The translations under genes and the position numbers were made by a program. A stretch of 64,000 nucleotides of DNA from Streptomyces roseochromogenus subsp. oscitans DS 12.976 (lineage in GTDB: Bacteria > Actinomycetota > Actinomycetes > Streptomycetales > Streptomycetaceae): contig NZ_CM002285.1 of NCBI RefSeq assembly GCF_000497445.1, forward strand, positions 6,690,719 to 6,754,718, written 5' to 3'. Positions within the stretch are counted from its first letter, which is position 1. Each line of letters starts with the position of its first letter. Shown in pieces: positions 21,348-56,904 of the stretch. A model generated the notes under the pieces. The model did not search any database. It was not told the DNA's origin and saw only the letters and a list, made by a program, of their open reading frames with translations.

Positions 21348-21424
21348 GGGGCGGTAGCTCAGCCGGTTAGAGCAGCGGACTCATAATCCGTCGGCCGTGG
21401 GTTCGAGTCCCACCCGCCCCACCA
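21348..21424 (+). tRNA. tRNA with anticodon CAT (Ile2 or elongator Met), integration target
   Basis: The acceptor stem GGGGCGG pairs with CCGCCCC, followed by A and an encoded CCA. The anticodon loop is CTCATAA, giving CAT. The sequence does not by itself tell a lysidine-modified tRNA-Ile2 from elongator tRNA-Met; I lean to Ile2. From base 21,377 (within the anticodon stem) to just past CCA it is duplicated at 47,762-47,810, so the gene is kept intact by the inserted element's own tRNA 3' end. Confidence 0.93.
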
Positions 21425-21425
21425 G
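21377..21425 (+). repeat. attL: 49-bp direct repeat within tRNA 3' end
   Basis: The core begins GGACTCATAATCCG and ends CCCCACCAG. It matches 47,762-47,810 base for base over 49 bp and the match stops at both edges (GC versus AA on the left, GCAC versus TGCA on the right). It covers the anticodon arm through the CCA end, the usual target of tyrosine integrases. Confidence 0.93.
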
Positions 21426-21465
21426 GCACCGCAGGTGCAGAAGCGTTTCTACCTGCGAAAACGTA

Positions 21466-21504
21466 GAAGGAGGGCCGCCGCGCCGAGCGTGGTGGCCCTC
21501 CTTC
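21466..21504. terminator. Long-stem hairpin between tRNA and integrase
   Basis: GAAGGAGGGCC and GGCCCTCCTTC form an 11-bp perfect stem around a 17-nt loop. It lies between the 3' ends of the tRNA and the integrase gene, so it probably terminates both. Confidence 0.75.
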
Positions 21505-21524
21505 ACTCGTTCAGATCAAGATCC

Positions 21525-21562
21525 AGTGGACGCGTAGTGGACGCGGGGACGGTTCAGTGGAC
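21525..21562. repeat. AGTGGAC repeats at the island's left end
   Basis: AGTGGAC occurs at 21,525, 21,536 and 21,556. A matching set with 11-bp spacing lies near the right end at 47,617-47,645. Their placement near both att cores suggests arm-type binding sites for integrase or its directionality factor. The last copy overlaps the integrase stop codon. Confidence 0.45.
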
Positions 21563-23203
21563 CGAAGTACTCTCACGCGCCTTTCGTCGCCTGCTTGGCC
21601 CCCGGCGGGCGGTCCGGATCGCTGCGGAAGGCAAGCCGGTCGGTAGCGACCAGGCGTCCAGGGCTGGAGACTTGGAGCGGGCGATCGTGAAGCGGGTGAG
21701 CGAGAACGCGGACCGCTGCTCCTCCGGGTAACGGTCGTTGAAGTTCTCGACCCGGACCAGCTCCAGATCGTTCGCGGCGCAGTGGTCGCGTATCCATTTC
21801 ACAGCCGCGTTGGCGGCATCGTCCTGGCCGCGGCCGGCCATCGTGATCATGCCGAGGAGATCGGCGTCCGGATGAGGCTGCGCTCCGACGGCCCAGGTAT
21901 CGGCCGACTGCCGCGCGCCGTGGGCGAAGAAGACGGCCACGTCGCCTTGCCAGGCTTCCGCGGGGATCTCCATGGGGGTGCGTACCTTGAAGGGGATTTC
22001 GCGGGGGACGACGGCCATCACGGACTCGGCTTCGGCCCGCATCATCTCGGGCAGCACGCTGGTGTAGGTGTCGGAGGTGATCTGGCGTGAGGAGTGCCCC
22101 AGCTTCTCCTGGACCACCTTGATGTCGGTCCCGGCGAGCAGGGACAGGGTGGCAGCGAGGTGGCGCAGGTCGTGGAGGCGGACTGGCGGAAGGCCGGACA
22201 GCTCCACGAGACGGGAGAAGCGTCGTGATATCCAGTCGGGATGGAGCGCCTCACCGTTCTCGTGCGTCCACACGCGGCCGGTCTCGTCGTAGGCGTCCTT
22301 CCACTCCTGGCGCTTCTGTTCTTGCTTCGTACGGAAGTTGACCAGGTTGTCGCCGGACTCCAGGCTCAGTGGCAGGGTGCGAACGCTGTCGGCCTTCGGC
22401 GTCTCGCCGTACAGCTTGTAGACGACTTCCACGATCTGTTGGGAGATCCGCAGCCAGAGCGCATCGGTGCTGACCTCCGTCCAGGGCAGCGCAGCCATTT
22501 CTCCACGGCGGGGGCGCAGGAAGATGAACGAGTGCCATAGTTCGTAGAGCCAGTCGTCTTTGACAAAGTCCAGGAACTCGCCGGTCAGTTGCGGCGTCCA
22601 GACCATGACCGGGCCGGGCTTCTCCCCGGTGCGCTTCCAGTGCTCGATTCGCTCAGGGGTCCAGACGAGCGGCTTCGGGCGGGTGACCGGCGGCAGCTCG
22701 ACCAGCTGTGCCCAGTTCTTGGCGAACGCGCTTTCGCGCTTGATACCCCAACTCAAGGCGGAGGACAGCGTGTCGTTGATGCGGTGCATGGTGGCTGCGG
22801 AAGTGACCTTCCGCAGCCCTCTCTTCCCTTCGCGAAGTGCCGCGTTCGCGTCGAGGAACGTTCGTCGGGCGGCGCGGCGCTCCTCCTTCTTCCCGGCTGC
22901 CCTCACCCAGGCCTGGTGCGCGGCGTCGCGGTCCTTCTGGAGCTGATCGACGCGGAGGCGGTGGAGAACTCTCTCGGCGTTCTCCTTCTCGATGGCGTCG
23001 TACATGAGGTCGAGGTGCCGGACCTTGAGGTTGCACCGCTTGATGTGCCCCAGGTGAGGGATGAGGTAGTTGTGAATGTGCTCTTCGTAGCCATGGCGGG
23101 TCGTGCGGGCCAGTGACTTCTTTGCCTTGATCCACCGGAGGAAGAAGTCGCCGCACTTCTTACAAGGGTCGCGAAGGCGAACGCATAGGGGCTTGAGCGG
23201 CAA
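21554..23203 (-). CDS. int: Tyrosine recombinase (site-specific integrase) of the island
   Basis: The 549-residue product starts at TTG with AGGAG 6 nt upstream. The core-binding SAM-like domain is at about residues 18-160, interrupted by a charged helical hairpin (80-130). The catalytic residues are Arg233 (RPRRGE), His344 and Arg347 (LHDLRHLA), His370 (LGHSS) and Tyr380 (SDTYTSVLP). It lacks the usual N-terminal arm-binding domain, having instead a short stretch with four Cys (positions 7, 14, 17, 57). It continues for about 160 residues after the nucleophile, an unusual tail including GDVAVFFAHGARQSADTWAVG. It should catalyse integration into the CAT tRNA next to it. No excisionase is visible beside it. 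Confidence 0.93.
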   Translation of the reverse strand: MPLKPLCVRLRDPCKKCGDFFLRWIKAKKSLARTTRHGYEEHIHNYLIPHLGHIKRCNLKVRHLDLMYDAIEKENAERVLHRLRVDQLQKDRDAAHQAWVRAAGKKEERRAARRTFLDANAALREGKRGLRKVTSAATMHRINDTLSSALSWGIKRESAFAKNWAQLVELPPVTRPKPLVWTPERIEHWKRTGEKPGPVMVWTPQLTGEFLDFVKDDWLYELWHSFIFLRPRRGEMAALPWTEVSTDALWLRISQQIVEVVYKLYGETPKADSVRTLPLSLESGDNLVNFRTKQEQKRQEWKDAYDETGRVWTHENGEALHPDWISRRFSRLVELSGLPPVRLHDLRHLAATLSLLAGTDIKVVQEKLGHSSRQITSDTYTSVLPEMMRAEAESVMAVVPREIPFKVRTPMEIPAEAWQGDVAVFFAHGARQSADTWAVGAQPHPDADLLGMITMAGRGQDDAANAAVKWIRDHCAANDLELVRVENFNDRYPEEQRSAFSLTRFTIARSKSPALDAWSLPTGLPSAAIRTARRGPSRRRKARESTSVH

Positions 23204-23581
23204 GCCAACTCCTGTCGTGTGATGTTGATCTCATGGTGACAGTGTGTGCGCGGAACGAAGAGCGTGTCAGTTTTCAGTAAAGAGCCGATCATTCACAGGT
23301 TGCGCACAGGTGTTCACCGCTCTGAGGGTCGTCACCGCGATGACTGTCGGTAACTTCCCCTGCCGATTTTGGTCTTGCTTCGTGTGCATGACGCGTGCAT
23401 ATGGTGATGATCCTCTCCCGGAACGGATCAGACCAGTCCGTTTCTGGGAGAAGGGCCGGCGCGTCCTGGGGGGAAGCGCCACGTACACGCCAGCCTCCCC
23501 AACTCCCGAGGGGGCTGGCCGCTTCCCTCTCAGAGCGTGACCCGGAATACGGGGCCACACCTTCATAGAGAGGGATTGCGC
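23204..23581. other. Divergent promoter region, integrase / giant toxin
   Basis: This 378-bp gap separates two divergent genes. It is less GC-rich in its first half (for example GTGTCAGTTTTCAGTAAAG near 23,264). A GAGAGGGA ribosome binding site for the toxin is at 23,567-23,575. I see no complete gene; an excisionase is not recognisable here. Confidence 0.5.
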
Positions 23582-26500
23582 GTGTTGCGCAGACCACCCA
23601 GACCACCATCGAGCAGACGCAGATGGGCGAGAAGACTGGCGACTCCGGTCGTCTCCATCGCCTCACTCGGCCTGCTCGCCACCCTTGCCGTCCACCCCGA
23701 ACTCGTCACCCACGATCCGAGCGGCGTGAAGCCGGCAGCTGACTCCTACCCCTGGTACACCCAGACGGCGGCCGAGCAGTTGCGGCAGGACCAGTGCCTC
23801 ATGTCAGAGGTTCTGCGCCTGGGCGGGCCCACCATGGCCACGACCGCGCAGGACGGGCTGAACCAGCCCGCGGACAAGCTGCACGTCCTGGCCAACCGGG
23901 ACCACTGGGACAAGACTCCGCTCGCGGGCGCCTACCAGAAGGACCGGGACGCCTACGACAAGCAGCTCGACGACCTTCACAACCTGCGCAACGCCTGGCA
24001 GAAGCCGCTCGCTGGCCTGTCGACGCCGGCCGGGTTCACCGATGCGGACTTCCACTGGCCTCCGGGATCGCCCGGTGACGGCAAGCAGGACTTCTACACG
24101 CAGACCGGCCTGTCGAAGTGGATATCCGACCGGTTCTGGAAAGACGACGCCGACTTCTACACCGACCCCACCGCCAAGGCCGACGACAAGACGGTCCAGG
24201 CGTTCAAGACGATCGGCGACCCCCTCTACACCGGGGACCCCGACCCCAGCCTGCCCCCCGAGGCCCGGGACCGCCGTTACGCGGAGCAGTCCGCCTACGA
24301 GTTCCTGAAGTTCAGGGACCAGTACTTCGCCGATGACCTGCGGCTGTTCCTGACCTCGGGCGGTTTCCCCCACACCGCACCGGATCCGGACTCCCCGGAG
24401 TACCGGGTCGCCGTGGAGGACGTGAAGACCCGGTTCGCGGCCTGCTCCTGGCGGGACCCGATCGACCCGGACAAGGTTCTCGGCGACGTCACCAGCACAG
24501 CCGCGAAGGAGTGGCAGCAGGAGATCAGCAGCCAGGCGGGGATGCGGAACACCATCCTGGACGCCAACGAGGACGCCGTCACCAGCCTCACCAAGGCCGC
24601 CAAGATCCTCGGTGACCTGCTGGGCCAGTCCTGGACGGCTGACCATCTCGCGCGCTGGCAGGACTACTGGCAGCCGGGTGGGCTCGGCTGGGTCGGGGAT
24701 GCCGACAACATCGTCCAGGTCGTCAACGCCGCCGGTAAATGCCTCGACGTCCAGGGCTCCGGTACCGCGAATGGCACGCCGGTGCAGGTGTACACCTGCA
24801 ACAACAGTGCGGCACAACGGTGGAAGATCCACGGCAGCGAGGATGCCGCCCAGCTCGTCAACGTCGCCTCGCAGAAGTGCCTGGATGTCGCCGGGAACAA
24901 CGACGACAACAAGACGCCGATCCGGATCTGGCAGTGCAATGACAGCCCCGCCCAGCGGTGGGCGCTGAACATGCAGTCCGACACCCCCATCAAGAGTGTC
25001 GGCACCGGGAAGTGTCTGGACCTGCACACGTTCAACAACGGGCAGGACGCCTGGCTGTACGGCTGCAACAACAGTGCGGCGCAGAAGTTCCGGGTCAAGC
25101 CCCTCGGTCACAACGGCACCGACGACAGCAGCTACCCGGACAAGGCGCAGTTCACCAAGGCCACCACCGGCATCACCAACGCACGCACCAAGGCCAAGAG
25201 CCTCCTGGAAGACCTGAAGGCGTTGCAGAAGACCGCAGCGGCGGCGGCGAAGAAGTCCGACGACGCCGAAACTGCCTCCTACCAGGTTGCCGACCAGCAG
25301 GGCGCCCCGCGTGGGCGCGGGCTGTTGGTGGGTCAGCAGAAGAACCAGGTCACCCAGGGCATCACCGCCGCTGTGGACGCCATGGAGAAGGCCGGCGAAA
25401 CGGCGGAGGCTGCCACCCGCGCGAGTGGCTCGGACAGCGACACGATCGCCCAGCGCGCGATAGCTCAGGCCGCGCAGGTCAAGACGGAGTTCCGCCACCA
25501 GGCCGCCCACACCGCAGAGTTGCAGGCCAAGGCAGCAGCGGATGCGGCGAAGGTCCACCGGGACAACGCCAAGCAGGATGCTGACACCGCCAAGCAGAAG
25601 CTTGGCGAAACGCTCGCGGCGGAGGACAAGGCGAAGACGGCGGCCGCCACCGCCCACGCCCGCCGCCTGGACGCCGAAGCCCAGGAGGCCACGGCGAAGC
25701 AGGAGAAGGCCAACGCCGCCGCCGCCCAGACCGAAGCGAACCAGCATCGGAAGAACGCCGAGGACCTGGCGGGCAAGGCGAAGGACGCGAAGGACAAGGC
25801 CGAAGCCTCCGAGAAGACCGCATCGGACAAGCGGGACGACGCCAAGGCCAAGGCCAACCACGCCCGCGACATGCGGAATGACGCCTGGGACGCCCAGCAG
25901 AAAGCCAACGTCGACCGCACCAAGGCCGACGCAAAGAAGGCTTACGCCGACTCCCTCGACGCCGGGGACGACGCCGACAAGGCACGCCAGGCCGCGAACG
26001 ACGCCGACAAGCACGCGACCGACTCCGAGACGGCCGCCAAGAAGGCCCAGGACGAAGCCGACGCCGCCACACAGTCTGCCGAGGACGCCGATGCGGCAGC
26101 GACCAGGGCTGAGGCGGCGGCGAAGCGGGCACGCGCGGACGCCAATGAAGCGCAAGCGGCGAAGGCAGACGCCGACGCAGCCGTACGCACCGCCACCGCC
26201 ACGGCCGCTGACGCCATCGCAGCCTCCCAGCACGCCGCCGGCGAAGCACGGACAGCCGTCAAGCTCGCGGATGAGGCCGAGACCGATGCGAACAACGCCA
26301 AGGCCCAAGCGGACTCGGCGAAGAAGGACCTGAAGGACGCCCTCGTCGCAGCGGCCAAGTCCGCCGGGTACGCGCACGTCACCGCCCAGGCGGCCGTGGA
26401 TGCGGGGAAGTCGGCGAAGCAGGTCGTCAAACCCGCCAACGACGCCATCGAACTCGGCTCCCCCTACATTGACAACGACTCCACAGCCGAGCTGGTGGTC

Positions 26501-28465
26501 CTGACCGGGCAGGCGTCGAAGACTCTCGCCGAGCAGCAGAAGGCTGTTGCTGACACGCATGCGAAGAACGCGCAGGCGGAGGCTGATGCCGCGAAGAACA
26601 TCGCGGACCAGGCGAAAGACGACACCAAGGCAGCGTTGCAGTCAGCGGCCAACGCCGCACGATCAGCAGCGGACGCCCGCGGCTACGCCAACCAGGCCTT
26701 GGACTATTCGGCCGACGCCGCGAAATCGGCGGCGGCTGCTGTGGACTCGCTGAACCGGACGAAGGAGTACGACCGGCAGGCCGGCGAAGACGCCGCCGCA
26801 GCCGACACCGCAGCGACCAGCGCCGAAGGCTACGCGAAGGACGCCCGCGCCTCAGCCGACGAGGCCGCCCTCGACGCAGACGCCGCCCACAAGGCAGCCG
26901 ACCAGGCCGCACAGGACGCCAAGGACGCGAGGGCTGCCGCCAACCGCGCCGACCAGGCCGCGACCGAGGCCGAAAACTACGCCAAGGACGCCGACAAGTA
27001 CGCCAAAGAAGCCCAGGACATAGCCACCGACACGGCGAAGAAACAAGCCAACCAGGAACTCGGCAAGGGCTCCATGACGGGTGTCCCCGGCGTGTTCGTC
27101 GTCCCGGAAGACGGCACCTTCCAGATCCTCAGCGGCACACAGCAAGGCAACTGCGTTCCAGGGATGCCGCAGGCAGCGATCGTCGGCTGCGACGCCACGT
27201 ACAGCGAAATCCACGTCAAATACGTTGCCGACTTCTACTTGTGCACCGACGATCAGGCACCGGCCACGGCCGAGGGCTGTCCGCCGACGGCCTGGCGTCT
27301 CCTGGAGCGGAAGCTGCTGCCGGACGTCAAGATCACCAACTGGCAGCACCACTTCTCCGGTGAGGACGTCGTCCGCGCCGGATGGCAGACCCTCTTCGGC
27401 GAAGTACCGGGGAACGTCCTGTTCGAGTTCTTCGCCAAGGACATGCTCAAGTGCCTCCACGGCAGCGCCGCCGGCTGCGCCTGGGCGTATGCCAACTACG
27501 GCGGAGCAGACAGCGCACTCAGCGAGATCGTCAAGAACGTCTTGGACCTTAACCGCGCGGTTAAGTCCGAGGACGGTATCGCGGATGCCTGGAAGTCTCT
27601 CAAAGAGTCTGGACTCGACGACGACGTCGTCGCTGGCATCGGCAAGAAGGAAGCCGACAAGATCGCCGCAGCCTGCCGGAAGAACAGCTTCCCGGCAGGT
27701 ACACAGGTCCTGATGGCAGACGGTTCCCGTAAGGCGATTGATACGATCACCACGGACGATCGGCTTCTGGCCACCGACTCTCAGACCGGGGAAACTCGCC
27801 CGGAGCCGGTCACCGACACCTTCTCGCACCGCGCGGACCAGTTGGTCGCGATCACCTTCGCCGACGGCGGACGTGTCCTCACGACGCCAGGCCACCGGAT
27901 GTACGTGACGGGCCATGGCTGGACAATCGTGTCGGAGCTGGCCGCCGGCGACCGGCTCAGGACCCCGGACGGTAAGACGGACGTCGTGGCCGACCTGCGG
28001 ACGCTGACAGCACCGCAGACGGTCTGGGACCTGACGGTCGATGACCTCCACACCTTCTACGTGCTGGCTGGTGCAAAGCCGGTCCTCGTTCACAACTGCG
28101 AGGGTGAACTCAGCGACGCCCTGTACGACGAGATCGATGCGCGCTACGGCACGGACATCGCTGACGGTGTGGAATACAACGCGATGCGGATGCACGACGG
28201 CACTGCGCAATCCCTCGACCACGAGATTCCAGGCATTGGGCACAACCTGAAGTTGCTCGCCGACTACCTGGCCGGCTGGCGCAATAAGTTCACCTACCGT
28301 GACGTGAGGCAGGGTTCACAGGTGGTCTACGACACAGGCAAGGGAGTGCTCGTGGTGAAGACACCACGCAATATCCATGCCTACCAGTACACCGCTGATC
28401 AGTGGGAGAAGGGCGTGCACGAGGGCCGGTACGTGCCGCTGAATCCCGGAGGAGGAACACCGTGA
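23582..28465 (+). CDS. Giant secreted polymorphic toxin: ricin lectin, Ala-rich coiled coil, Hint domain, toxic tip
   Basis: The 1,627-residue product starts at GTG behind GAGAGGGA. An Arg-rich N-terminus and a hydrophobic segment (VVSIASLGLLATLAV) form a signal peptide or anchor. Residues about 375-510 are a ricin-type beta-trefoil with three CLDV/L...QRW repeats, a sugar-binding domain. About 530-1160 is an Ala/Lys/Asp-rich coiled coil with hundreds of residues of heptads, a stalk. Residues 1365-1505 are a Hint (hedgehog/intein) self-cleaving domain: Cys1365 near NSFPAGTQVLMADGS, TTPGHRMY, and the end VLVHN-Cys1506. The last 122 residues are the predicted toxic tip, released by cleavage after Asn1505. 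The tip has no family I can name. An immunity gene overlaps its stop. Confidence 0.88.
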   Translation: MLRRPPRPPSSRRRWARRLATPVVSIASLGLLATLAVHPELVTHDPSGVKPAADSYPWYTQTAAEQLRQDQCLMSEVLRLGGPTMATTAQDGLNQPADKLHVLANRDHWDKTPLAGAYQKDRDAYDKQLDDLHNLRNAWQKPLAGLSTPAGFTDADFHWPPGSPGDGKQDFYTQTGLSKWISDRFWKDDADFYTDPTAKADDKTVQAFKTIGDPLYTGDPDPSLPPEARDRRYAEQSAYEFLKFRDQYFADDLRLFLTSGGFPHTAPDPDSPEYRVAVEDVKTRFAACSWRDPIDPDKVLGDVTSTAAKEWQQEISSQAGMRNTILDANEDAVTSLTKAAKILGDLLGQSWTADHLARWQDYWQPGGLGWVGDADNIVQVVNAAGKCLDVQGSGTANGTPVQVYTCNNSAAQRWKIHGSEDAAQLVNVASQKCLDVAGNNDDNKTPIRIWQCNDSPAQRWALNMQSDTPIKSVGTGKCLDLHTFNNGQDAWLYGCNNSAAQKFRVKPLGHNGTDDSSYPDKAQFTKATTGITNARTKAKSLLEDLKALQKTAAAAAKKSDDAETASYQVADQQGAPRGRGLLVGQQKNQVTQGITAAVDAMEKAGETAEAATRASGSDSDTIAQRAIAQAAQVKTEFRHQAAHTAELQAKAAADAAKVHRDNAKQDADTAKQKLGETLAAEDKAKTAAATAHARRLDAEAQEATAKQEKANAAAAQTEANQHRKNAEDLAGKAKDAKDKAEASEKTASDKRDDAKAKANHARDMRNDAWDAQQKANVDRTKADAKKAYADSLDAGDDADKARQAANDADKHATDSETAAKKAQDEADAATQSAEDADAAATRAEAAAKRARADANEAQAAKADADAAVRTATATAADAIAASQHAAGEARTAVKLADEAETDANNAKAQADSAKKDLKDALVAAAKSAGYAHVTAQAAVDAGKSAKQVVKPANDAIELGSPYIDNDSTAELVVLTGQASKTLAEQQKAVADTHAKNAQAEADAAKNIADQAKDDTKAALQSAANAARSAADARGYANQALDYSADAAKSAAAAVDSLNRTKEYDRQAGEDAAAADTAATSAEGYAKDARASADEAALDADAAHKAADQAAQDAKDARAAANRADQAATEAENYAKDADKYAKEAQDIATDTAKKQANQELGKGSMTGVPGVFVVPEDGTFQILSGTQQGNCVPGMPQAAIVGCDATYSEIHVKYVADFYLCTDDQAPATAEGCPPTAWRLLERKLLPDVKITNWQHHFSGEDVVRAGWQTLFGEVPGNVLFEFFAKDMLKCLHGSAAGCAWAYANYGGADSALSEIVKNVLDLNRAVKSEDGIADAWKSLKESGLDDDVVAGIGKKEADKIAAACRKNSFPAGTQVLMADGSRKAIDTITTDDRLLATDSQTGETRPEPVTDTFSHRADQLVAITFADGGRVLTTPGHRMYVTGHGWTIVSELAAGDRLRTPDGKTDVVADLRTLTAPQTVWDLTVDDLHTFYVLAGAKPVLVHNCEGELSDALYDEIDARYGTDIADGVEYNAMRMHDGTAQSLDHEIPGIGHNLKLLADYLAGWRNKFTYRDVRQGSQVVYDTGKGVLVVKTPRNIHAYQYTADQWEKGVHEGRYVPLNPGGGTP

Positions 28466-28842
28466 GAGGTAAACCGTTCGTCCGGCGAGAGAGGAACGGG
28501 TTCGCCGTGCGGTTCGTCGGAGCACAGCGTGACCTCGTCGGCGAGGCACTGCTCTGGCTCGCCTACAGGCGGGAGGGCGAATCAGTACTCCAGGTGTGGG
28601 CCGGGTGTGGTAAACAGCAACTGGAAGAACTCCACGGCAGGATCCAGAGTGCCGGTGATCGTGAGTATGTGGTTCTCTCAGCCGGGGAACTGCATACTCT
28701 GCACGCCGTGCTGACGTCCGTGTACTGCATGTTCGCTTCGGAGGAGGCCTTCCACGAGCAGCTCGGGTTTTACCGCGAGAACCTTTTCGCCCTGGTGAGC
28801 GGCCTGATGGTGACAGTAAGCCAGGCTGCCACAGCCGAGTAA
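28462..28842 (+). CDS. Predicted immunity protein for the Hint toxin
   Basis: The 126-residue product starts at a GTG that overlaps the toxin stop codon (GTGA), so the two are translationally coupled. GGAGGA lies 6 nt upstream inside the toxin gene. There is no signal peptide, as expected for a cytoplasmic antidote. The sequence has a beta-rich N-terminal half (GFAVRFVGAQRDLVGEALLW) and a helical C-terminal half (YCMFASEEAFHEQLGFY). No immunity family was recognised; the role is inferred from position only. Confidence 0.7.
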   Translation: MRGKPFVRRERNGFAVRFVGAQRDLVGEALLWLAYRREGESVLQVWAGCGKQQLEELHGRIQSAGDREYVVLSAGELHTLHAVLTSVYCMFASEEAFHEQLGFYRENLFALVSGLMVTVSQAATAE

Positions 28843-28862
28843 TCGGATCCATCGGTCCTTCA

Positions 28863-28895: not shown

Positions 28896-28901
28896 GGGCT
28901 A

Positions 28902-40900: not shown

Positions 40901-43900
40901 CCAGGCCTACCTGGCCAACTTCCACAACCCGGACGGCTCCACCACCACAAAGGTCCTCCAGCAGGATGCCTACGACGCTGCCGGCCATCTGACGGAACAG
41001 CAGAACACCGCCGCCCTGATCGAGACCGACTACACCGTCGACCCCGCGGGCCTGGTCACCGGATCCGTCTTCGACCCCTACGGCCAGAACAAGACCACCA
41101 CCTCCAACAGCTACGACCCCGACGGCAACCTCACTTCTGCATCCGTCACCAAGGGCAGCACCACCGAACAGACCGACTACGCCTACAACACCCTCGGCGA
41201 CGCCACCTCCGAGACCGTCCACAACGGCTCCACCAACCTCGTCACCACCCACACCTACGACCAGCGCGGACTGCTCACCTCCACCACCGATCCGCGCGGC
41301 AACGTCTCCGGCGCCACCCCCGCGAACTACACCACCGCCTTCACCTCCGACCAGGCGGGCCAGCTCACCCAGGTCGCTGCGCCGACGGTGAACGCGGAGA
41401 CCAACGGCGGCACGCCGCAGCAGGTGCACCCCATCACCCTGTACGGCTACGACACCTTCGGCGATAAGACGTCCATCGACGACCCCGACGGCAACATCAC
41501 CACCTACACCTACGACTCCGACGGCGAACGGGTCGCCACCTCGGGGGCTGCCTACACCCCGCCAGGGTCCACCACCGCCATCACCCCCACCGTCACCGCC
41601 CAGTACAACGCGGCCGGAAGCATCACCGCCGCCACCGACGGCAACGGCAACACCAGCAGCTACACCTACGACCAGTTCGGCAACCTGGCCCAAGCTGTTC
41701 AGCCCGCCGTAGGCGGCAGCGCACCGACCACCCACACCACGTACGACACCGACGGCGAGAAGCTGTCCATCACCGACCCGACCGGCGCGGTCACCACGTC
41801 GACCTACGACGACCTCGGCCGCACCCTGACCGTCAGCCAGGTGGTCCGGCAACCAACCACCACCACCGACACAACTACCTACGGCTACGACGCGGCAGGC
41901 AACCCCAACTCCACGACCCTGCCGGGCGGCCAGACCTCCACGGCTACCTACGACACGGCCGGTAACCGAATCACCGCCACCGACCCGCTGGGCAACAGCA
42001 CCCACTCCACGTATGACCTCGACAACCGGCTGACCCAGACCACACTGCCTGACGGCACGGCCATCACCCACACCTACGACCTGGCCGGACGTCAGACCGG
42101 ATCGGCAAAGCTGGACGCGTCCGGCACCACCCTGGCCTCCACCTCTACCAGCTACGATCCGGCCGGCAACCCCACAGCGGTCACCGACGCCAACGGCCAC
42201 ACCACCCGCTACACCTACGACGCCACCAACGTCCTCACACAGCAGACCGAACCGGTCACCTCCACCTCGTCCATCACCACCAGCTTCGGCTACGACTCCG
42301 CCGGCAAGCACACCCGCTACACCGACGGCAACGGCAACGCCACCATCACCACCTACAACACCCTCGGCCTGGCCGAATCAACCATCGAGCCGAGCACCCC
42401 CTCCTTCCCGAACGTCTCCGACCGCACCACCACCACCGCCTACGACGCCGACGGCCACCCCGTCACCGTCACCCGACCCGGGGGCGTCATCGAGACCAGC
42501 GCCTACAACGCCGACGGACAGCTGACCAGCCAGTCAGGCAGCGGAGCCGAGGCAACCACCACCACCCGCACCTTCGGCTACGACGCTGCCAGCCGCGTCA
42601 CCTCCGTCAGCGCCCCCAACGGCACCAACACCTACACCTACAACGACCGCGGCGAGATCACCGCAGCCAGTGGACCGTCCGGCACCGCCAGCTACGCCTA
42701 CAACTCCAACGGTCAACTGACCTCCCGGACCGACAAGGCCGGCACGACCGCCTTCACCTACGACAACGCCGGAAACCTTGCGACCGCCGCCGACCCGCTG
42801 AACGGCACCACGCTGACCTACACCCGAAACACCCTCGGCCAGGTCACCGGCATCTCCTACGGCAGCGGTGCCGCCAGCCAAACCCTCCACTACGACGCCC
42901 AGCACCGGCTGACCAGCCAAACCCTCACCACCCCCGGTGGTGCCACCGAAGCAGCCACCAGCTACGGCTACGACACCGCAGGAAACATCACCTCGCAGGC
43001 CACCACCGGCACTGCCGCAGCCGCCAGCAACACCTACACCTACGACCAGGCAAACCGACTGAGCAGCTGGAACAACGGAACCACCAGCACCTCCTACGGC
43101 TACGACAACGCCAGCAACCGCACCAGCACCGCCACCGGCTCAACCACCTCCACTGCCACCTACAACGCCCGCAACCAGCTGACGTCCACCACCGCAGGCT
43201 CAGCGACCACCAACTACAGCTACACCGCCCGAGGCACCCTGGCGACGGTCACTGGCACCAGCACCGAGAACCTCACCTACGACGCCTTCGACCAACTCGT
43301 CACCGATGGCGCCACCAATTACACCCACGACGCCCTCGGTCGCCTTGCCACCGCGGGATCGGCAACCTTCACCTACAACGGCACCGACAACACCATCGTC
43401 TCCGACGGCACCGACACCTACAGCCGTGGCCTCGGGAACCAGCTGATCGGCATCAGCAACAGTGCGGGCGCATCCCTCGCCTACACCGACCAGCACGGCG
43501 ACCTCAGCGCCACCTTCACCGCAACTGGCACAGCCCTAGCTGGGTCCACGGCCTATGACCCCTACGGGCAGGTCATCGCCAACAGCGGCACCAGGCACGA
43601 CCTCGGCTACCAAGGCGGCTGGACCGACCCCACCACCAGCCGGACCGCCACCGCCAGCCGCTGGTACGACCCGGCAACCGGCAACTTCACCAGCCACGAC
43701 GCCACCGCCCAGCCCCCTGCCCCTTCCGTCAACGCAAACGCCTACGCCTACGGCAACGACAACCCCCTCACCAACGCCGATCCCTCCGGCAACAGCTCCT
43801 GCTACAGCACGCCCTATACCCCTGCTCCGGAACCGAGCACCAACTGGCAGCCGGCAGGCGACGGTGGTGGAGGAGACACAGGCGGCGGTGGCGGAGGCGG

Positions 43901-45047
43901 CGGCGGTTACACCGCGCCGCACGATGTCACCAGCACGTACGACGCGACTCAGGGCGACGACATCTGGAACACCCTCGAGGTGGTGGGTCTGGGCATCCTG
44001 ATCGGCGTAGCTGTTGTAGCCGCGGTGGTCACCGCCCCGGTAGACGCAGTCGTCGGCGGACTGGCAGCGATAGGCGCAGGCCTCGCAGCCGCCTTCGACT
44101 TCGGGTACTCGAGCTGCGACGTCGCAATCAGCCACCCGGCACCGCCGCCGCCCCCGCCGCCGACCGCGCAGATGGGCCTGCGTGAAAACCCCGGCGCCCG
44201 CCCCAGCGGCCAAGCTGACGGTGCCAGCCCCAAGATCGACCCGTCCAAGTTCAAGGTGGTCGCCACTGTGGCCGCCGCTGCCGCAGCCCAGGCAGGCCAC
44301 CAGCCGCTCGCCAACGGCGGAACTTCCTCGGCTGCCGGCAACGCACTGGCCTCGCTCACCGCGGCGGGGGCTACCGCGGCGTTCTGCACCCTGACTGGGG
44401 CGTGCACGCCCCAAGACGATCAGTCGGACCCGGGGTGCCAAGTCGACGGTGCTGGATGGACCGACTATGGACCAGTCGACATCGGCCATGGCGGACGCGC
44501 GACTGGAGTGACGGCGTGCCTGGACAGCAGCTACTTGGAGTCACATCCGGGCACCTCGACCGAGACCAACAAGGGCGAGGGGATCGTTCCGCCAGGCTAT
44601 GACTGGGCGCGAAAGTACGTCGGTTATTTGGGCGGCAAGCCGAGTGGCGTGAACGCCTGCCACCTCCTGGGGGCACAATTGAGCGGCTCCGGCACCAATC
44701 TCGAAAATCTTGCAACCTGCGGAACGGATGGAAACTCGTACGTCGGGAAGCCCAATAAGCCGATCAAGCCGATGGATAGCATGCTGCATTTCGAAGACAA
44801 GGTGCGGCAGGCAGTGGATGACGGCAATATCGTTCTCTATCGGGTGACGCCGGTATATTCCGGTAGTCGAACCGTGCCGTACGAGATGCAAATGTCCTAC
44901 GTTTCCTGGGACCGCTCCGGAAGACTCAACGGGGCCGCATCAGACACCGTTTCCAACCTCATATACACTGCGGGTAGCGGATGGAAGAACCTTGGCACAG
45001 CGGTCGACAGCCGAACCGGCGCCGATGCCCCCGTCGCCGGTCAGTAG
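34986..45047 (+). CDS. Giant RHS/YD-repeat toxin with LamG domains and C-terminal nuclease
   Basis: The 3,353-residue product starts at ATG giving MSRHRFRVSSG, with a signal peptide ending near AEA (about residue 55). Order of parts: a beta-rich N-terminal region with DUF/PT-HINT-less lectin-like modules (about 150-800); a YD-type entry segment (about 815-1040); two LamG-like concanavalin domains (about 1045-1290 and 1335-1580); a long YD-repeat shell (about 1590-2935) with many TYTYD and GYD repeats; the RHS core end RWYDPATGNFTSHDA and NPLTNADPSGN. After it come a hydrophobic segment (about 3000-3038) and a C-terminal domain like the DNA/RNA non-specific endonuclease family: NACHLLGAQLSGSGTNLENL with His3226, and RVTPVYSG. 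An SUKH immunity gene follows 33 nt downstream. Confidence 0.92.
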   Translation: MSRHRFRVSSGVGKGLASLIALLTGGVQRRWLRRIALAVSGVLLVAVATQPAEAVIDEHALASGSAVLPHQRTGSAAGLPHQVKSAALRTKGSASSPKAKAVRGALPPSKTHVPKAKERGSFRPQGQLAAKRVSPPARIRAALLKEAQRKAAKAAGAGSSAQEGDPHIPGPNASGAEVVKDRTGNTSVFRNADGTLTARVYSRPVHYRTAKGAWADIDSTLVQGSDGRWAERADSAPAGFAASGNDPLLVSYGPSASEQVGYSLQGAAAVTGQVSGNAISYPQIATSSDLKYSVTSGGVKETLVLHDASAPTSWVFPLQLTGLTPSLTSDGSVVFKNSSGAVRVTIPHGYMEDSNIGKVSGEGATSTGVTYSLTTVDGAPALRVSLDASWLHDKARVFPVKVDPTNLNASSSTYVETPYDINFSTDSVLKVGSYDGGSHKANSYVLNWSFGSTFQNDYIEQASLYLDDVWSGGCTAEPVYVHGITSSWNVGTIADYPGLSYGSTIGSSSFEAGASCGGSSWHGIDIGDNPSAAGVKLLEGWAHGTVYNNGLALTADNSVVAAWKQFASVNSSYPPYLSVTYSSYGADYSIPKQTYTQPTASTTGSMKVALTNRGTASWSTSSTQLATDIYNTSWTKLSTNATKTYVTSSVSPNSSLTMTGTLPAEPPGQYYVCWDMLTSGTSFYTTYNVPQTCAEFTSADTPPQIDSTSPPSNVVAGSLTPQLFAGGSDPDNYPGNGLTYDFQVYTNPASGKPSLVVDSGSVSKTQWTVPAGKLAWNQSYYWIVSDSDGDAQSAWSYPSYFSTTVPQPLITSHLGEAAQGPAGRTFAPRVGNYTTAATDAEVSVAGPALSVRRSYNSLDPRTGNLFGAGWSTLYDMSALPDNDGSGAVVVTLANGQATRFGLNADGTTFTPPQGTYSTFQTVTGGGYTLTDKSGTTYTFGQQVGSAWKLKTIKDASGRSETLSYNADGTLATATNTTSSRTLHFTWSGGHVTQVATDPATSGGTAETWTYSYTSGNLTGVCPPTSSTACTAYSYTSGSSSGSHYRTSVLDANPSSYWRLGESTGTSAASEVAVNEGNDNGTYTGGYTLGAAGPLPGSPTTAATLNGSTGYVSLPNSLLTSASYVSAGMWFKTTSSGVLFSYQKDALTNSSTPGNYTPALYIGTSGKLYGEFWAGSVSPISTSSSVADGAWHYAVLSAAGNTQSLYLDGNLVGTLSGQVSVTGQPVDAIGTGFIGGHWPDEPHYSTTSNTGYRTFFNGSVAEAAFYTHALGLPAVQQQYTAGTHAASELTGTTLPSGKTALAASYDASRDQATQITDADGGTWKLGQPTTTGSGAYYRDAVISQAAPNYWRFQDTSGNQAANEVAGTTASNWWSSGPATYNNVTLGAPGLFTGSPETAASFNGTSSYVSLPSTTIYGGKVSANFSIELWFKTSASGETLFSYQSGPIGTTLSGNYTPALYVGADGHLYGQWWDHLLSPMESPDPVNDGQWHQAVLTVNTNGEQTLNLDGQQADTRTGQQLDFTGENVVSIGAGYLSGSWPSLPSNNPQGYFNGSIAEVSTFNQALSTQAVAAQYAARGTSNGATPVTTVPVTDPTGKTLTYRYDPANSYRLISVTDALGHTTSYSYDSGGFFATVTDPDGNFTTTTQNTRGDVLSSTTSDMHGDTTTSYSSYPASGTYGVTDPRNDEPTSTADPRSTSATDTTYATTYTYDSAGNLLTSTDPDQHAVTKTYTAGTESAVGGGTEPAGLLASVKDAKGNVTGYAYSSAGDLAQVTSPSGLKTTYTYDNLGRRLTSTQTSDTYPAGVTTNYTYDGQDRIVTATGPATTDAVKGTTHTSQTTYTYDDDGNTTSQAVADTTGGDTTRTSAWTYNSHDRLDSVTDPAGRKTTYGYDAYGNRTAETDPNGNAYTYAYSPTGELLTTTLTNYTGDPVSPSSPTSLVLDSRAYDPAGWLASDTDAMGRTTSYYYNWNHKLIQAYLANFHNPDGSTTTKVLQQDAYDAAGHLTEQQNTAALIETDYTVDPAGLVTGSVFDPYGQNKTTTSNSYDPDGNLTSASVTKGSTTEQTDYAYNTLGDATSETVHNGSTNLVTTHTYDQRGLLTSTTDPRGNVSGATPANYTTAFTSDQAGQLTQVAAPTVNAETNGGTPQQVHPITLYGYDTFGDKTSIDDPDGNITTYTYDSDGERVATSGAAYTPPGSTTAITPTVTAQYNAAGSITAATDGNGNTSSYTYDQFGNLAQAVQPAVGGSAPTTHTTYDTDGEKLSITDPTGAVTTSTYDDLGRTLTVSQVVRQPTTTTDTTTYGYDAAGNPNSTTLPGGQTSTATYDTAGNRITATDPLGNSTHSTYDLDNRLTQTTLPDGTAITHTYDLAGRQTGSAKLDASGTTLASTSTSYDPAGNPTAVTDANGHTTRYTYDATNVLTQQTEPVTSTSSITTSFGYDSAGKHTRYTDGNGNATITTYNTLGLAESTIEPSTPSFPNVSDRTTTTAYDADGHPVTVTRPGGVIETSAYNADGQLTSQSGSGAEATTTTRTFGYDAASRVTSVSAPNGTNTYTYNDRGEITAASGPSGTASYAYNSNGQLTSRTDKAGTTAFTYDNAGNLATAADPLNGTTLTYTRNTLGQVTGISYGSGAASQTLHYDAQHRLTSQTLTTPGGATEAATSYGYDTAGNITSQATTGTAAAASNTYTYDQANRLSSWNNGTTSTSYGYDNASNRTSTATGSTTSTATYNARNQLTSTTAGSATTNYSYTARGTLATVTGTSTENLTYDAFDQLVTDGATNYTHDALGRLATAGSATFTYNGTDNTIVSDGTDTYSRGLGNQLIGISNSAGASLAYTDQHGDLSATFTATGTALAGSTAYDPYGQVIANSGTRHDLGYQGGWTDPTTSRTATASRWYDPATGNFTSHDATAQPPAPSVNANAYAYGNDNPLTNADPSGNSSCYSTPYTPAPEPSTNWQPAGDGGGGDTGGGGGGGGGYTAPHDVTSTYDATQGDDIWNTLEVVGLGILIGVAVVAAVVTAPVDAVVGGLAAIGAGLAAAFDFGYSSCDVAISHPAPPPPPPPTAQMGLRENPGARPSGQADGASPKIDPSKFKVVATVAAAAAAQAGHQPLANGGTSSAAGNALASLTAAGATAAFCTLTGACTPQDDQSDPGCQVDGAGWTDYGPVDIGHGGRATGVTACLDSSYLESHPGTSTETNKGEGIVPPGYDWARKYVGYLGGKPSGVNACHLLGAQLSGSGTNLENLATCGTDGNSYVGKPNKPIKPMDSMLHFEDKVRQAVDDGNIVLYRVTPVYSGSRTVPYEMQMSYVSWDRSGRLNGAASDTVSNLIYTAGSGWKNLGTAVDSRTGADAPVAGQ

Positions 45048-45080
45048 CGCCGTGGATGTTCCACGAGAGAGGACTCGTAC

Positions 45081-45644
45081 ATGGGCCACCCGGCTATGAG
45101 TCACCCCGCGATCCTGCGCCTTGGTCAGGTACTCGAAGCGCCTCCGACCGGTGGTGACCGCGTCGACTGGGATGTGCTGTTCGAGGAGTCGGGTCTGCGG
45201 TTGCCCGAGGACTACCGTGCCTTTGTCGAGGTCTATGGCGGGGGGGAAATCGATGAGTACCTTTCGGTGAGCACCCCGCCGGTTACGGAGTCAGCCTATG
45301 GCGATCTGCTGGATGGGTTGAACCCATCGCTCCGTCCAGCAGATCTGGAGTTCTTGGCAGGTCACTTTGCTGGCAGTGCAACGCCGGAGGTTTTGGCCTT
45401 CGGTGGCACTGCGAGCGGTGACGCAGTCTTCTGGCTGTGCACTGACACTGATCCCGACAAATGGAGTGTCGCCGCCTTTAGACGCCAGTCACCCTACGGA
45501 ACCGTTCCCTGGACGGTTTTCAGTGGCGGGATGGTGGAGTTCCTGCTGGCTGTCCTTGGCGGGAACCTCCAGCCTTTCAGTGACCGCAGTCTTGCCCAAG
45601 GGCCGCACGAATTTCTCGGTTGGCGAGCCATGAGAGGTTTCTGA
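45081..45644 (+). CDS. SUKH (SMI1/KNR4) immunity protein 1
   Basis: The 187-residue product starts at ATG with GAGAGGA about 8 nt upstream. The SUKH signature is clear: DWDVLFEESGLRLPEDYRAF, then VYGGGEIDEYL, VLAFGGTASGDAVFWLC and a C-terminal helix MVEFLLAVL. SUKH proteins neutralise nuclease-type polymorphic toxins by binding them. The position just after the RHS-nuclease gene makes it the likely cognate antidote. It has no signal peptide. Confidence 0.9.
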   Translation: MGHPAMSHPAILRLGQVLEAPPTGGDRVDWDVLFEESGLRLPEDYRAFVEVYGGGEIDEYLSVSTPPVTESAYGDLLDGLNPSLRPADLEFLAGHFAGSATPEVLAFGGTASGDAVFWLCTDTDPDKWSVAAFRRQSPYGTVPWTVFSGGMVEFLLAVLGGNLQPFSDRSLAQGPHEFLGWRAMRGF

Positions 45645-45884
45645 AAGCCAGTTGCTGCTGGCATCCTTCTCGGCAGCCCGGGGCTGCGTCGTTCTCGCGG
45701 GGTGCTTAATCACCTGATGTCCAAGGGGGCCAGGGGCCTGGCGGGGTTGCCGGCGTGGTGCCGGAGGCCCTCAGCGATGCTTGCGCGGCCGGTGAGCCGG
45801 GGACGCACCCTAGTCGTAGGACGTGCCCGACCCGCCCGGCCGGGTGCCGTGCAGGGCGAGCCTGCGCGGCACCGAGGAGGAGAA

Positions 45885-46463
45885 GTGAACCAGAACATGC
45901 GCAAGCTCATGACCTTGATGCCTCCGCACGTTGGTGCGGGTGACGTCATCGACTGGCGCCAGGCGCGCGAAGTGTGGGGCTGCGATTTCCCTTCCGATTT
46001 CCGGGACTTCATGTCCGTCTACGGATCAGGCGTGATCGAGGACCGCCTCGCCATCTCTCGCCAGAACGAGGGCGCCCCGGGTGACGGGCCCTATGGCGCC
46101 TGGTTCGTCCCGTCCCCGGACTGGCTGGAGGACGTTTCGGCGCCGTATCCGGCATGGCCGGCAGCGGGAAGTCTGATCTGCTGGGGGGAGGATTCGAACC
46201 AGAACGTCCTGTGCTGGTCCACCCGCGGCAGTGATCCGGACAAGTGGCCGGTCGTTGTCTGGGACTCCGGCGGTCTCGACGGCGAGGCATTCATCGAGTT
46301 CGACTGCGGCATGGCGGAGTTGCTGCTTCGGATCTTCAGTGAAGAACAGCCGTATCCCTTCAACGAGGGATTCCTGGGCGGTGTCACCCGTCCCAGATTC
46401 GTGCATCGCAGGGAAGAGGCCCGTCTGCGTGGGCTCGGCATCAACCCTTGGCCGGACGCTTGA
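45885..46463 (+). CDS. SUKH immunity protein 2
   Basis: The 192-residue product starts at GTG behind GAGGAGGAGA. It shares the SUKH layout of the preceding gene: VIDWRQAREVWGCDFPSDF, FMSVYGSGVIEDRL, LICWGEDSNQNVLCWST, DPDKWPVVVW and MAELLLRIF. The 240-nt gap before it contains no gene. A second antidote in tandem may protect against related toxin tips of other strains, a common arrangement. Confidence 0.88.
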   Translation: MNQNMRKLMTLMPPHVGAGDVIDWRQAREVWGCDFPSDFRDFMSVYGSGVIEDRLAISRQNEGAPGDGPYGAWFVPSPDWLEDVSAPYPAWPAAGSLICWGEDSNQNVLCWSTRGSDPDKWPVVVWDSGGLDGEAFIEFDCGMAELLLRIFSEEQPYPFNEGFLGGVTRPRFVHRREEARLRGLGINPWPDA

Positions 46464-46617
46464 ACCTCACCCGCAACCAGGCGCAGCCTCTTGCCCAAGA
46501 AGCGGGCGCACGGCAGGCGTCTGCGACTGCGGCTGTTCTCGGTGCCACCCAAGAGGAATGCGTTGTCCAGAACAACGCAACGGCATCAGGTAGCTACTGC
46601 AGTCACGGGATTTGGTG

Positions 46618-46911
46618 ATGATTTCTACAAAAATTGTCGACGCTCTCCTGCCTCTTCTTGGCGGTCCTGTTCGCCACGGCGAAGAGAAACAGCTGAGAGA
46701 GGTGGCAGCAGAGTGGGGTGTGCAGTTTCCACCGGCCTTCGTTGAAGCTGCCGGGGCGTACGGGGACACAGTCATCTGCGACTACATCTTTCTTTGCGGT
46801 GCCCGGAAGATCCGCTCCTATGCTGAGCGAATGGGGCGTCGAATGGAGCAGTCTCGGGAGCGATCGAGACCGACTGGATGCCGGAGTGGCCTTCGCGGCC
46901 ATACCCCCTAG
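46618..46911 (+). pseudogene. Truncated SUKH immunity gene 3
   Basis: The frame starts at ATG giving MISTKIVDALLPLLGG and keeps the first part of an SUKH domain (VAAEWGVQFPPAF, AAGAYGDTVICDYIFL). After about residue 70 the similarity stops and the frame ends early at 46,911. The middle and end of the domain are missing, so this is a broken third antidote gene. Confidence 0.65.
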
Positions 46912-46979
46912 AACTCGTTGACTGAGCTCTTTCGGCGTGGTCACTGAACCTCTTTGCCGTGGCTGGTCCGTGACGCGGT

Positions 46980-47421
46980 TCAGCCTCACCCTTATGAGCA
47001 GTTGGCCGCGCTACCGCGCAGTGGGGCGTGACGGCGAGTCGCGGAGGGCGCTGCTGGCTCAGCAGCGTCGGCGCCGTGAGGCGGCGGGCGTCTCGGCGAA
47101 AGCATGGGGCCTTCTCCAGGACGCAACGGTCGGGTACGGGTATCGGCCGTGGCTGGCCGGGCTGTGGTTGTTGGGCCTGCTTGCCGCCGGATCGGTCTAC
47201 TTCGCGTCCCACCACCCTGCACCGCTGGGCACGGGCAACCCGCATTTCAACGCGGTCGCCTACACGCTCGACCTTTGGTGCCGGTAGTGAGCCTTGGTCA
47301 ATCGGGCGCGTGGAATCCGAGCGGGTCCAGTCAGGTGCTGGCCTATGCGCTGATCAGCAGTGGTTGGACGCGAGCCACGACGCTGGTCGCCGGGGTCACA
47401 CGAATACTGGTGCGGCCTTGA
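46980..47421 (+). pseudogene. Frameshifted C-terminal relic of a large membrane protein
   Basis: One frame reads ALLAQQRRRREAAGVSAKA, then GYGYRPWLAGLWLLGLLAAG and a membrane helix up to AYTLDL. From there the continuation LVPVVSLGQSGAWNPSG to ATTLVAGVTRILVRP is in another frame, which needs a 1-nt deletion near 47,275. The pieces match the C-terminus of a Streptomyces protein commonly annotated as membrane-associated oxidoreductase. The N-terminal part is absent. Confidence 0.6.
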
Positions 47422-47616
47422 GATGACGGGTCTCTCTGCGGTTGGCCCGCCAGTCACGAGGTGACATCAAACCGTCGCCCTTGGTAACGGTGACTGAGCG
47501 CCCGCTGCGCCGGTAAGGCACTCCGCTGCTCGCGGGTTCAAATCCTTCTGCACTCGGCGCCGCGGCCTGGACCGACGTCCTTGACGAGATCCCCTGGAGC
47601 CTTAATGAAGCGCACG

Positions 47617-47645
47617 CGTGGACCCGTAGTGGACACGCAGTGGAC
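47617..47645. repeat. GTGGAC repeats at the island's right end
   Basis: Copies of CGTGGAC or AGTGGAC start at 47,617, 47,628 and 47,639, exactly 11 bp apart. They mirror the set at the left end near the integrase. One helical turn spacing would place bound recombinase subunits on one DNA face. Confidence 0.45.
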
Positions 47646-47761
47646 GGAAGGATCAGGAATGATCGGGAAGCCTTCAACAAGGGGCGATAGCGGGTAGCTC
47701 TCTGACCTGCGAAAACAGGAAGATCAAGGCAAGATCATGCGATGATCGGAAGATCCGAAAA

Positions 47762-47810
47762 GGACTCATAATCCGTCGGCCGTGGGTTCGAGTCCCACCC
47801 GCCCCACCAG
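47762..47810 (+). repeat. attR: 49-bp copy of the tRNA-CAT 3' end
   Basis: This is identical to 21,377-21,425 over all 49 bp. No tRNA 5' half precedes it (AAAA instead), so it is the remnant left by integration. Confidence 0.93.
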
Positions 47811-56901: not shown

Positions 56902-56904
56902 CGC

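What the first reader, a model, noticed from the sequence alone, without database searches (positions are those of the whole stretch)
21377..47810. tRNA-integrated island whose cargo is two complete polymorphic-toxin units plus envelope enzymes
A 49-bp exact repeat of the tRNA-CAT 3' end bounds 26.4 kb with its own integrase. About 15 kb of this is two single genes for giant secreted toxins with antidotes; the rest is a wall amidase, an orphan mycosin and a BMP-like protein. There are no replication or transfer genes. A dedicated antagonism island of this composition is not a standard AICE or prophage.
Basis: partly seen in the sequence, partly recalled or inferred. Interest (0 to 1): 0.88.

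Follow-up and report, generated by a model that had tools for sequence, protein, structure and literature searches.

The report
Phage-ended island carrying two toxin systems
In a Streptomyces chromosome, a 26-kb stretch keeps the two ends of a virus that inserts in a transfer-RNA gene, but in place of virus genes it carries two very large secreted toxins with probable antidotes.

Summary
The 49-bp repeat is real: the only two copies in the window, marking a 26.4-kb island at tRNA-Met(CAT). The cargo is as described: two intact giant polymorphic-toxin genes with antidote candidates, a secreted amidase, a mycosin and a Bmp-like protein. Three points change the reading.

(1) The integrase is not that of a self-mobile antagonism island. 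Its close relatives belong to a temperate phage family at the same tRNA. The island keeps both attachment arms, but its integrase lacks the N-terminal arm-binding region, and no other gene of the one phage compared in full was found.

(2) The mycosin and Bmp-like genes form one divergent unit with the RHS toxin in the 8 closest of 29 mycosin loci fetched and in 0 of the other 21.

(3) The right flank (47,811 to about 74,342) is accessory too and begins with another element's arm: tandem accretion.

Four sister islands with the same right arm lack prophage genes and carry other cargo, one an RHS-HINT toxin. PT-HINT toxins are not enriched at this site (1 seen, 0.34 expected). Precedent: toxin-bearing defective prophages of Mycobacterium. 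New variant of a known kind.

The parts
21348..21424 (+). tRNA-Met(CAT) gene, the integration site (attL side)
   Evidence: ARAGORN. Whether it is Met or lysidine-type Ile was not tested.
21377..21425 (+). left copy of the 49-bp att core
21426..21562 (+). left attachment arm with arm-type repeats AGTGGAC at 21525, 21536, 21556
21554..23158 (-). 5'-truncated tyrosine integrase of a phage family; the open frame runs on to 23203 in unrelated sequence
   Evidence: Pfam Phage_integrase 1.6e-12, PHROG integrase 7.6e-37; N-terminal region of relatives missing
23537..28465 (+). giant toxin 1 (1642 aa; coding start perhaps 23726): hydrophobic N-terminal stretch, RicinB lectin, alanine-rich coiled coil (by eye), PT-HINT, C-terminal toxin of unknown fold
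28402..28842 (+). candidate immunity gene 1 (probable start near 28507)
   Evidence: position next to the toxin only; best Pfam hit E 0.088, not significant
29858..32725 (-). SLT + Amidase_2 + bulb-type lectin protein, probably secreted
   Evidence: relatives at E <= 1e-80 in 237 of 295 genus genomes
32835..33365 (-). Bmp-like short protein with an N-terminal hydrophobic stretch, partner of the mycosin
   Evidence: (E 1.1e-4, under cut-off)
33432..34691 (-). S8 mycosin with a C-terminal hydrophobic stretch, divergent from the RHS gene
34974..45047 (+). giant toxin 2: RHS/LamG protein with C-terminal DNA/RNA non-specific endonuclease (start near 34974-35019)
45081..45644 (+). SUKH (SMI1/KNR4) immunity candidate
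   Evidence: 25.5 bits, cut-off 25.4
45702..46463 (+). second SUKH immunity candidate (coding start probably near 45885)
47617..47761 (+). right attachment arm, conserved in five other elements; arm-type repeats at 47628 and 47639, a degenerate one at 47617
47762..47810 (+). right copy of the 49-bp att core (attR)
47811..47900 (+). arm of a further element in tandem; accessory DNA goes on past the window end to about 74342

Best explanation
The island is a non-autonomous, phage-ended element. A temperate tailed-phage family of Streptomyces integrates by a tyrosine integrase into the 3' end of tRNA-Met(CAT). Here the two attachment arms, the core and about 85% of that integrase gene (its 3' part) remain, but the N-terminal arm-binding region is gone, no other gene of the compared phage was found, and the space between the arms holds secreted antagonism genes. 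Shown: the att repeat, both arms with their arm-type repeats, the integrase truncation, the lack of matches to the compared phage, polymorphism of both toxin families, and the conserved RHS-mycosin-Bmp unit. Inferred: the island cannot excise by itself and moves only if a related phage supplies integrase in trans, or not at all; toxin 1 is released by HINT cleavage and the RHS nuclease from its shell, with the mycosin acting on the RHS product at the cell surface; the lectin domains bind target or own cell walls; the SUKH proteins and the gene after toxin 1 protect the producer; the toxins keep the island in the population.
For: Integrase relatives: 31 loci in Streptomyces, 27 of 31 beside the full tRNA-Met gene, 20 of 31 with at least 1 of 13 prophage genes and 9 with all nine of the early block, the query's source among them. 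The G006 element is a 66.6-kb prophage with terminase, portal, capsid, tape-measure and endolysin. Of its 69 called ORFs only the integrase matches the island; DNA similarity lies in the left arm plus integrase (21439-23160, 86%) and the right arm, apart from two short hits inside (E 8e-4). Truncation: of 19 loci whose match begins at residue 15-17, 16 carry a conserved N-terminal stretch of about 100 residues in full; L251, L262 and L268 keep parts of it in interrupted frames. Arm-DNA-bind hits (E 1e-4 to 3e-2, all under the curated cut-offs) occur in that stretch in 4 of 4 relatives scanned and not here. Arm-type repeats in both arms and nowhere else in the window, 0 expected. Right arm shared with five other elements, one of them the prophage. 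Polymorphism: 18 relatives of toxin 1, 3 broken, the other 15 with assorted C-termini and downstream genes; RHS: 2 of 2 relatives with another C-terminus; neither the two own C-termini nor the first antidote candidate matched any of 286 held loci at E <= 1e-3.
Against: No experiment. The truncated integrase keeps its catalytic region, so residual activity is not excluded. The toxin genes are intact, so the island may have been assembled as a unit. The most similar integrase (G170, 97-98%) lies at a contig edge and could not be read in full. Only one prophage proteome was compared in full, so genes of a different ancestral phage could have been missed. Base composition does not help: the island has 66.3% G+C against 71.2% to its left, but the shared chromosome beyond 74,342 has only 65.3%.
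Confidence: 0.74

Rival explanations
1. A functional att parasite or satellite: the island keeps exactly the sites that the phage integrase needs and is regularly excised and spread by helper phages; toxins are its fitness cargo.
For: The right arm is conserved (71-95% over 61-146 bp) in five other elements; of these G034, G109 and G123 gave no hit at E <= 1e-10 to the integrase or to any of 69 prophage ORFs, and G199 (L273) matches the integrase only over residues 380-543. G034 and G109 keep the left arm too. 17 of the 40 genomes with the right-end pattern have two or more copies.
Against: No packaging or regulatory gene was recognised; own genome holds no second close integrase (best other 45%); G123 does not keep the same left arm; deletion inside resident prophages would leave the same anatomy.
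Confidence: 0.2
2. One reading: a dedicated self-mobile antagonism island with its own integrase.
For: att repeats, an integrase-like gene and antagonism cargo.
Against: Integrase truncated; integrase and arms are phage-type; other elements at the site carry different cargo.
Confidence: 0.06
3. A composite: a toxin region of other origin came to lie between two att copies left by successive elements, by recombination within a tandem array.
For: Several att copies per genome are frequent (17 of 40), the right flank is another element's arm, and relatives of each large cargo gene occur in other chromosomes.
Against: Left and right arms match the two ends of one phage family and carry the same arm-type repeat.
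Confidence: 0.12

Closest known systems
Defective prophages with PEST toxin cassettes in Mycobacterium (PMC10654092, passages seen)
   Same: Actinobacterial prophages, defective prophages and candidate PICIs that carry polymorphic toxin plus immunity genes next to the integration functions, with tyrosine integrases often at tRNA genes.
   Different: PEST toxins have WXG100 motifs for ESX export; here an RHS protein and a lectin-HINT protein without a WXG hit. Here no other gene of the compared phage was found.
Accretion of AICEs at tRNA genes in Streptomyces (PMC9513070, passages seen)
   Same: Several elements in tandem in one tRNA gene with identical direct repeats and variable cargo.
   Different: AICEs carry traB; none was found here, and the integrase is a phage's.
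Polymorphic toxin systems with HINT, RHS and SUKH (PMC3482391, passages seen)
   Same: Conserved N-terminus, variable C-terminal toxin, adjacent immunity genes; RicinB, bulb-lectin and Laminin-G domains described; tandem SUKH loci described; a mycosin-like protease near Ntox38 toxins and S8 protease with RHS for Ntox32 tabulated.
   Different: A divergent Bmp-mycosin / RHS unit was not among the passages seen.
Streptomyces umbrella toxins (PMC13274773, passages seen)
   Same: Secreted polymorphic toxins of Streptomyces with lectins of, among others, ricinB, bulb and laminin-G kinds.
   Different: Lectins sit on separate UmbA proteins there; here in the same chain as the toxin. No ALF repeat hit in toxin 1; that UmbC has ALF repeats is recalled.

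Membership tests
AICE | TraB/FtsK-type transfer protein | tested here: not met
   None in the nine proteins scanned; no listed PF01580 match in the island, 6 of the 8 matches of this genome being listed
AICE | working integrase and replication initiator | tested here: not met
   No replication family; integrase truncated
Intact prophage | packaging and structural genes between the att sites | tested here: not met
   Of 69 ORFs of the related prophage only the integrase matches; no such Pfam family
Prophage remnant / phage-ended element | att arms and integrase of a prophage family at the same site | tested here: met
PICI-type phage satellite | packaging, capsid-remodelling or regulatory genes and induction by a helper | tested here: inconclusive
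   No such family among scanned proteins; induction not testable here
Tycheposon (definition recalled; only a listing seen) | tRNA site, intact tyrosine recombinase, cargo without transfer genes | tested here: not met
   tRNA and cargo met; recombinase truncated
PEST cassette | WXG100 domain on the toxin and a WXG100 partner | tested here: not met
   No WXG hit in toxins 1 and 2; L257, a related prophage-like locus, does have a WXG100-RHS protein
Polymorphic toxin, toxin 1 | conserved scaffold with variable C-terminal toxin and adjacent immunity gene | tested here: met
   N-termini 60-67% identical in 18 relatives; 3 broken, the other 15 have assorted C-termini, some shared among themselves, none like the own one. 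Immunity function not tested.
Polymorphic toxin, RHS protein | conserved RHS core with variable C-terminus | tested here: met
   G168 and G243: core 65% identical, other C-termini
Umbrella toxin | UmbC ALF repeats with UmbA/UmbB partners (ALF recalled) | tested here: not met
   No ALF hit in toxin 1; partners were not searched genome-wide

The most novel reading that the evidence does not exclude
Streptomyces carry a class of 'attachment-site parasites': islands of a few to some 26 kb that keep only the arms and core of a tRNA-Met phage, have lost its integrase, are moved in trans by the phage's integrase, and pile up in rows as an exchangeable set of offence and defence cassettes (RHS and HINT toxins, restriction-modification, NACHT and WD40 proteins). 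The window's island would be a large offensive member still carrying an integrase fragment.
Probability: 0.22. Interest if true: 0.72.

Novelty: new variant of a known kind. Interest (0 to 1): 0.5.

Why it matters
It links giant secreted toxins of Streptomyces to a specific phage attachment site, extending the toxin-bearing defective prophages known from Mycobacterium to another genus and other toxin classes. It offers a testable case of islands that live on a phage's attachment sites without a working integrase, and it defines a conserved partner unit (mycosin plus Bmp-like protein) for one RHS toxin family, a lead on how such RHS toxins are processed at the surface of a Gram-positive cell.

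Tried and rejected
Rejected: AICE (no transfer family; no listed TraB match in the island). Rejected: umbrella toxin for giant gene 1 (no ALF hit). Rejected: 'orphan mycosin'. Tested and not supported: that toxin cargo marks this element family. PT-HINT matches in 24 genomes, chosen from the 40 with the right-end pattern mostly for contiguity: 67 in all, 2 in own genome (1 in the island); of the 65 others 1 lies in a tRNA-Met interval (G034) against 0.34 expected, P about 0.29. Tested and not supported: the exact empty-site joint 21,425|47,811; no full-length match in 61 genomes, own included, because the right flank is accessory. Not useful: base composition. Led nowhere: solved-structure search with the C-terminus of toxin 1 (best E 0.065); structure prediction (job interrupted, then tool switched off), so the fold and target of toxin 1 stay unknown. 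PADLOC on 20 passenger proteins: 6 had hits, 3 of them in G182 (type I restriction-modification and a candidate defence protein), the others an ATPase, a subtilase and a transporter-like protein. Limits: the genus sample has 295 genomes drawn by the tool, one per species, so strain-level empty sites could not be examined; gene calls in relatives are from a home-made codon-usage caller; the cargo side of the 31 named loci is cut at 10 kb or at contig ends; the 29 mycosin loci hold only about 1.5 kb on each side, so partners further away would be missed.
Full report
1. Observation. The 49-bp repeat is exact (21377-21425 and 47762-47810); its first 48 bases have only these 2 matches in the window with up to 3 mismatches, 0 in the shuffles, and in the own genome it occurs in full only at these two places. 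The left copy is the 3' end of a tRNA read as Met(CAT), about 8 kb downstream of dnaG (11371) and 6 kb downstream of a sigma-70 gene (13822; both named by eye from the ORFs). Island G+C is 66.3% against 71.2% to its left, but 65.3% in the shared chromosome beyond 74,342, so composition does not mark it as foreign.

2. Genes. Giant gene 1 (23537-28465, +): hydrophobic N-terminal stretch, RicinB lectin, alanine-rich coiled coil by eye, PT-HINT and about 120 residues after it. Giant gene 2 (about 34974-45047, +): DUF6531, two LamG, 23 RHS stretches and a C-terminal DNA/RNA non-specific endonuclease, similar by sequence to the solved nuclease Spd1 (E 1.9e-6). Two SUKH genes follow. On the other strand: an SLT-Amidase_2-bulb-lectin protein, a Bmp-like short protein and an S8 mycosin. 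The two giant genes make up 15.0 of 26.3 kb.

3. The integrase is a phage's and is truncated. Searching genus genomes (89 of 295 at E <= 1e-60, own included) and named genomes (31 loci) gave relatives of which 27 of 31 lie beside the full tRNA-Met gene, mostly about 150 bp away. Of these 31 loci, 20 carry at least one of 13 prophage genes and 9 carry all nine of the early block (terminase subunits, ParB-like, methylase-like, recombinase-like and others; one of the 9 is the query's source). The G006 element (66.6 kb) has terminase, portal, scaffold, major head, tape-measure, minor tail and endolysin proteins by PHROGs; its head protein is 50% identical to a protein of Streptomyces phage ZL12 (annotated as hypothetical or putative), and the best phage-record match of the window's integrase is 39% over 70% (TurkishDelight). 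Of the 69 ORFs called in G006, one, the integrase, matches the island; by DNA the island matches it in the left arm and integrase (21439-23160, 86%) and in the right arm (47501-47539 and 47620-47761), plus two short hits of E 8e-4. The most similar integrase, G170 (97-98%), is cut by a contig edge; on another contig of that genome the right-end pattern adjoins five matches to the prophage. Of the 19 named loci whose match begins at residue 15-17, 16 have a conserved stretch of about 100 residues before the point where homology to the window's integrase begins; L251, L262 and L268 keep only parts of it in interrupted frames. That stretch gives Arm-DNA-bind hits, all under the curated cut-offs, in 4 of 4 relatives scanned and none here. 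An arm-type repeat (AGTGGACNCGNAGTGGAC) stands in both arms (21525; 47617 with one mismatch and 47628) and nowhere else in the window, 0 expected. So both arms remain while the part of the integrase that should bind them is missing; that this part binds arms is inferred from the weak Pfam hits and from the usual order of such integrases (recalled).

4. Sister elements. The right-end pattern occurs in 40 of 295 genus genomes with 0 in the reversed control rows; 17 of the 40 have two or more copies. The longer right arm of the window's island is shared by G006 (prophage), G034, G109, G123 and G199. G034 (15.3 kb) gave no hit at E <= 1e-10 to the integrase or to any of 69 prophage ORFs and carries an RHS-PT-HINT protein of 2217 aa and a bulb-lectin/FG-GAP protein. 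G109 and G123 likewise gave no prophage hit; G109 has PIN, transposase, S8, sigma, ABC-transporter and transglutaminase-like genes, G123 a PIN/Phd pair and a 1360-aa WD40 protein. G199 (L273 by its coordinates) matches the integrase only over residues 380-543. Others at the site: type I restriction-modification plus a candidate defence protein (G182), a NACHT protein (G013), and metabolic or transport genes (G217, G164). The cargo is a mixture, and PT-HINT toxins are not enriched at the site (1 of 65 non-own matches inside, 0.34 expected).

5. Accretion. I fetched 20 kb right of the tRNA in eight near relatives (L049-L056). In G016, G020 and G033 the chromosome resumes at window-scale position about 74,345, and in G003 and G027 at about 78,020, after 1.7-7.2 kb; in G007 and G009 at about 78,030 after 15-16 kb; in G013 not within 20 kb. 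In none of the eight did the cargo search find more than subtilases of about 30% identity. In the window 53 kb intervene, of which the island is the first half. The first 100 bp after the right core have 51 matches in 37 of 286 held loci (some overlapping stretches of one genome), 50 of them directly after a tRNA or att copy: this is the arm of a further element. Such tandem accretion is described for Streptomyces AICEs at a tRNA-Arg gene (PMC9513070, passages); here the ends are phage-type.

6. The toxins. Toxin 1's scaffold occurs in 58 of 295 genomes, own included; in those compared by coordinate (G007, G092, G141, G164, G213) it lies far from the tRNA. Of 18 relatives fetched, N-termini are 60-67% identical, 3 are broken, and the other 15 have assorted C-termini (some shared among them) followed by assorted small genes. 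The RHS scaffold occurs in 60 of 295 genomes; the two closest relatives (G168, G243) have other C-termini. The own C-termini of both toxins and the first antidote candidate matched none of 286 held loci at E <= 1e-3. Both families are polymorphic. The 8 closest mycosins outside the window stand divergent from an RHS relative and are followed by the Bmp-like gene (8 of 8); the next 21 mycosin loci fetched show neither within about 1.5 kb (0 of 21). The amidase family is ordinary for the genus (237 of 295).

7. Mechanism. Shown by sequence: phage-type ends, truncated integrase, toxin architectures and the conserved unit. Inferred: HINT cleavage frees toxin 1; the RHS shell frees the nuclease, with the mycosin (a mycosin-like protease is tabulated near Ntox38 toxins in PMC3482391, passages) acting at the surface; lectin domains bind cell-wall sugars, as the umbrella toxins' lectins do (PMC13274773, passages); SUKH proteins and the gene after toxin 1 protect the producer. 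The island needs an outside integrase to move.

8. What is known. Mycobacterium prophages, defective prophages and candidate PICIs carry polymorphic toxins beside their integration functions (PMC10654092, passages). Searches of the held library for polymorphic toxins with Streptomyces and islands or prophages (20 of 164 papers listed), for mycosin with RHS (one paper), for tycheposons and for RHS on integrase-bearing elements listed no paper that, by title and start of abstract, describes this site or unit; most papers were seen only in these listings, and papers outside the library were not seen. The finding is a new variant of a known kind.

Noticed in passing
G286:C1:2903526-3071598; G132:C1:7654938-7743298: Long rows of att copies at the tRNA-Met site (seven and six beside the tRNA), with some units only about 5 kb long; what the 5-kb units carry was not annotated.
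   Followed up: partly
G278:C1:9899283-9947486 and 11180685-11304113; G165:C2:10054298-10118131; G152:C2:11344066-11376901; G252:C1:9433949-9508964: Further att arrays megabases from the tRNA gene, toward a chromosome end; in G278 also near the start of the record (236719-360148), as if in terminal repeats.
   Followed up: no
47811-64000 and on to about 74342: Accessory region right of the island: YVTN-type propeller gene, transposase-like fragments near 52.1-53.2 kb, a molybdopterin-oxidoreductase-like gene and others, named by eye; no further att copy with up to 3 mismatches in the window.
   Followed up: partly
L257:2-3169: In a related prophage-like element (Streptomyces sp. L-9-10) a WXG100-RHS protein stands some 7 kb from the integrase, like the PEST toxins of Mycobacterium prophages; cut by the contig end.
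   Followed up: partly
L280:8091-12496 and L288:1917-6313: Two short tRNA-Met islands in different species carry the same gene pair (1360/1357 aa at 85% identity, 108 aa at 93%); the L280 large protein has WD40 repeats and neither L280 protein has a PADLOC hit.
   Followed up: partly
29858-32725, 23537-28465, 34974-45047: Each of the three large proteins has a different carbohydrate-binding type (bulb lectin, RicinB, LamG).
   Followed up: no
G141:C1:5583132-5692183: Two prophages of this family appear to stand in tandem at the tRNA in one genome (integrases at 5583871 and 5682183).
   Followed up: partly
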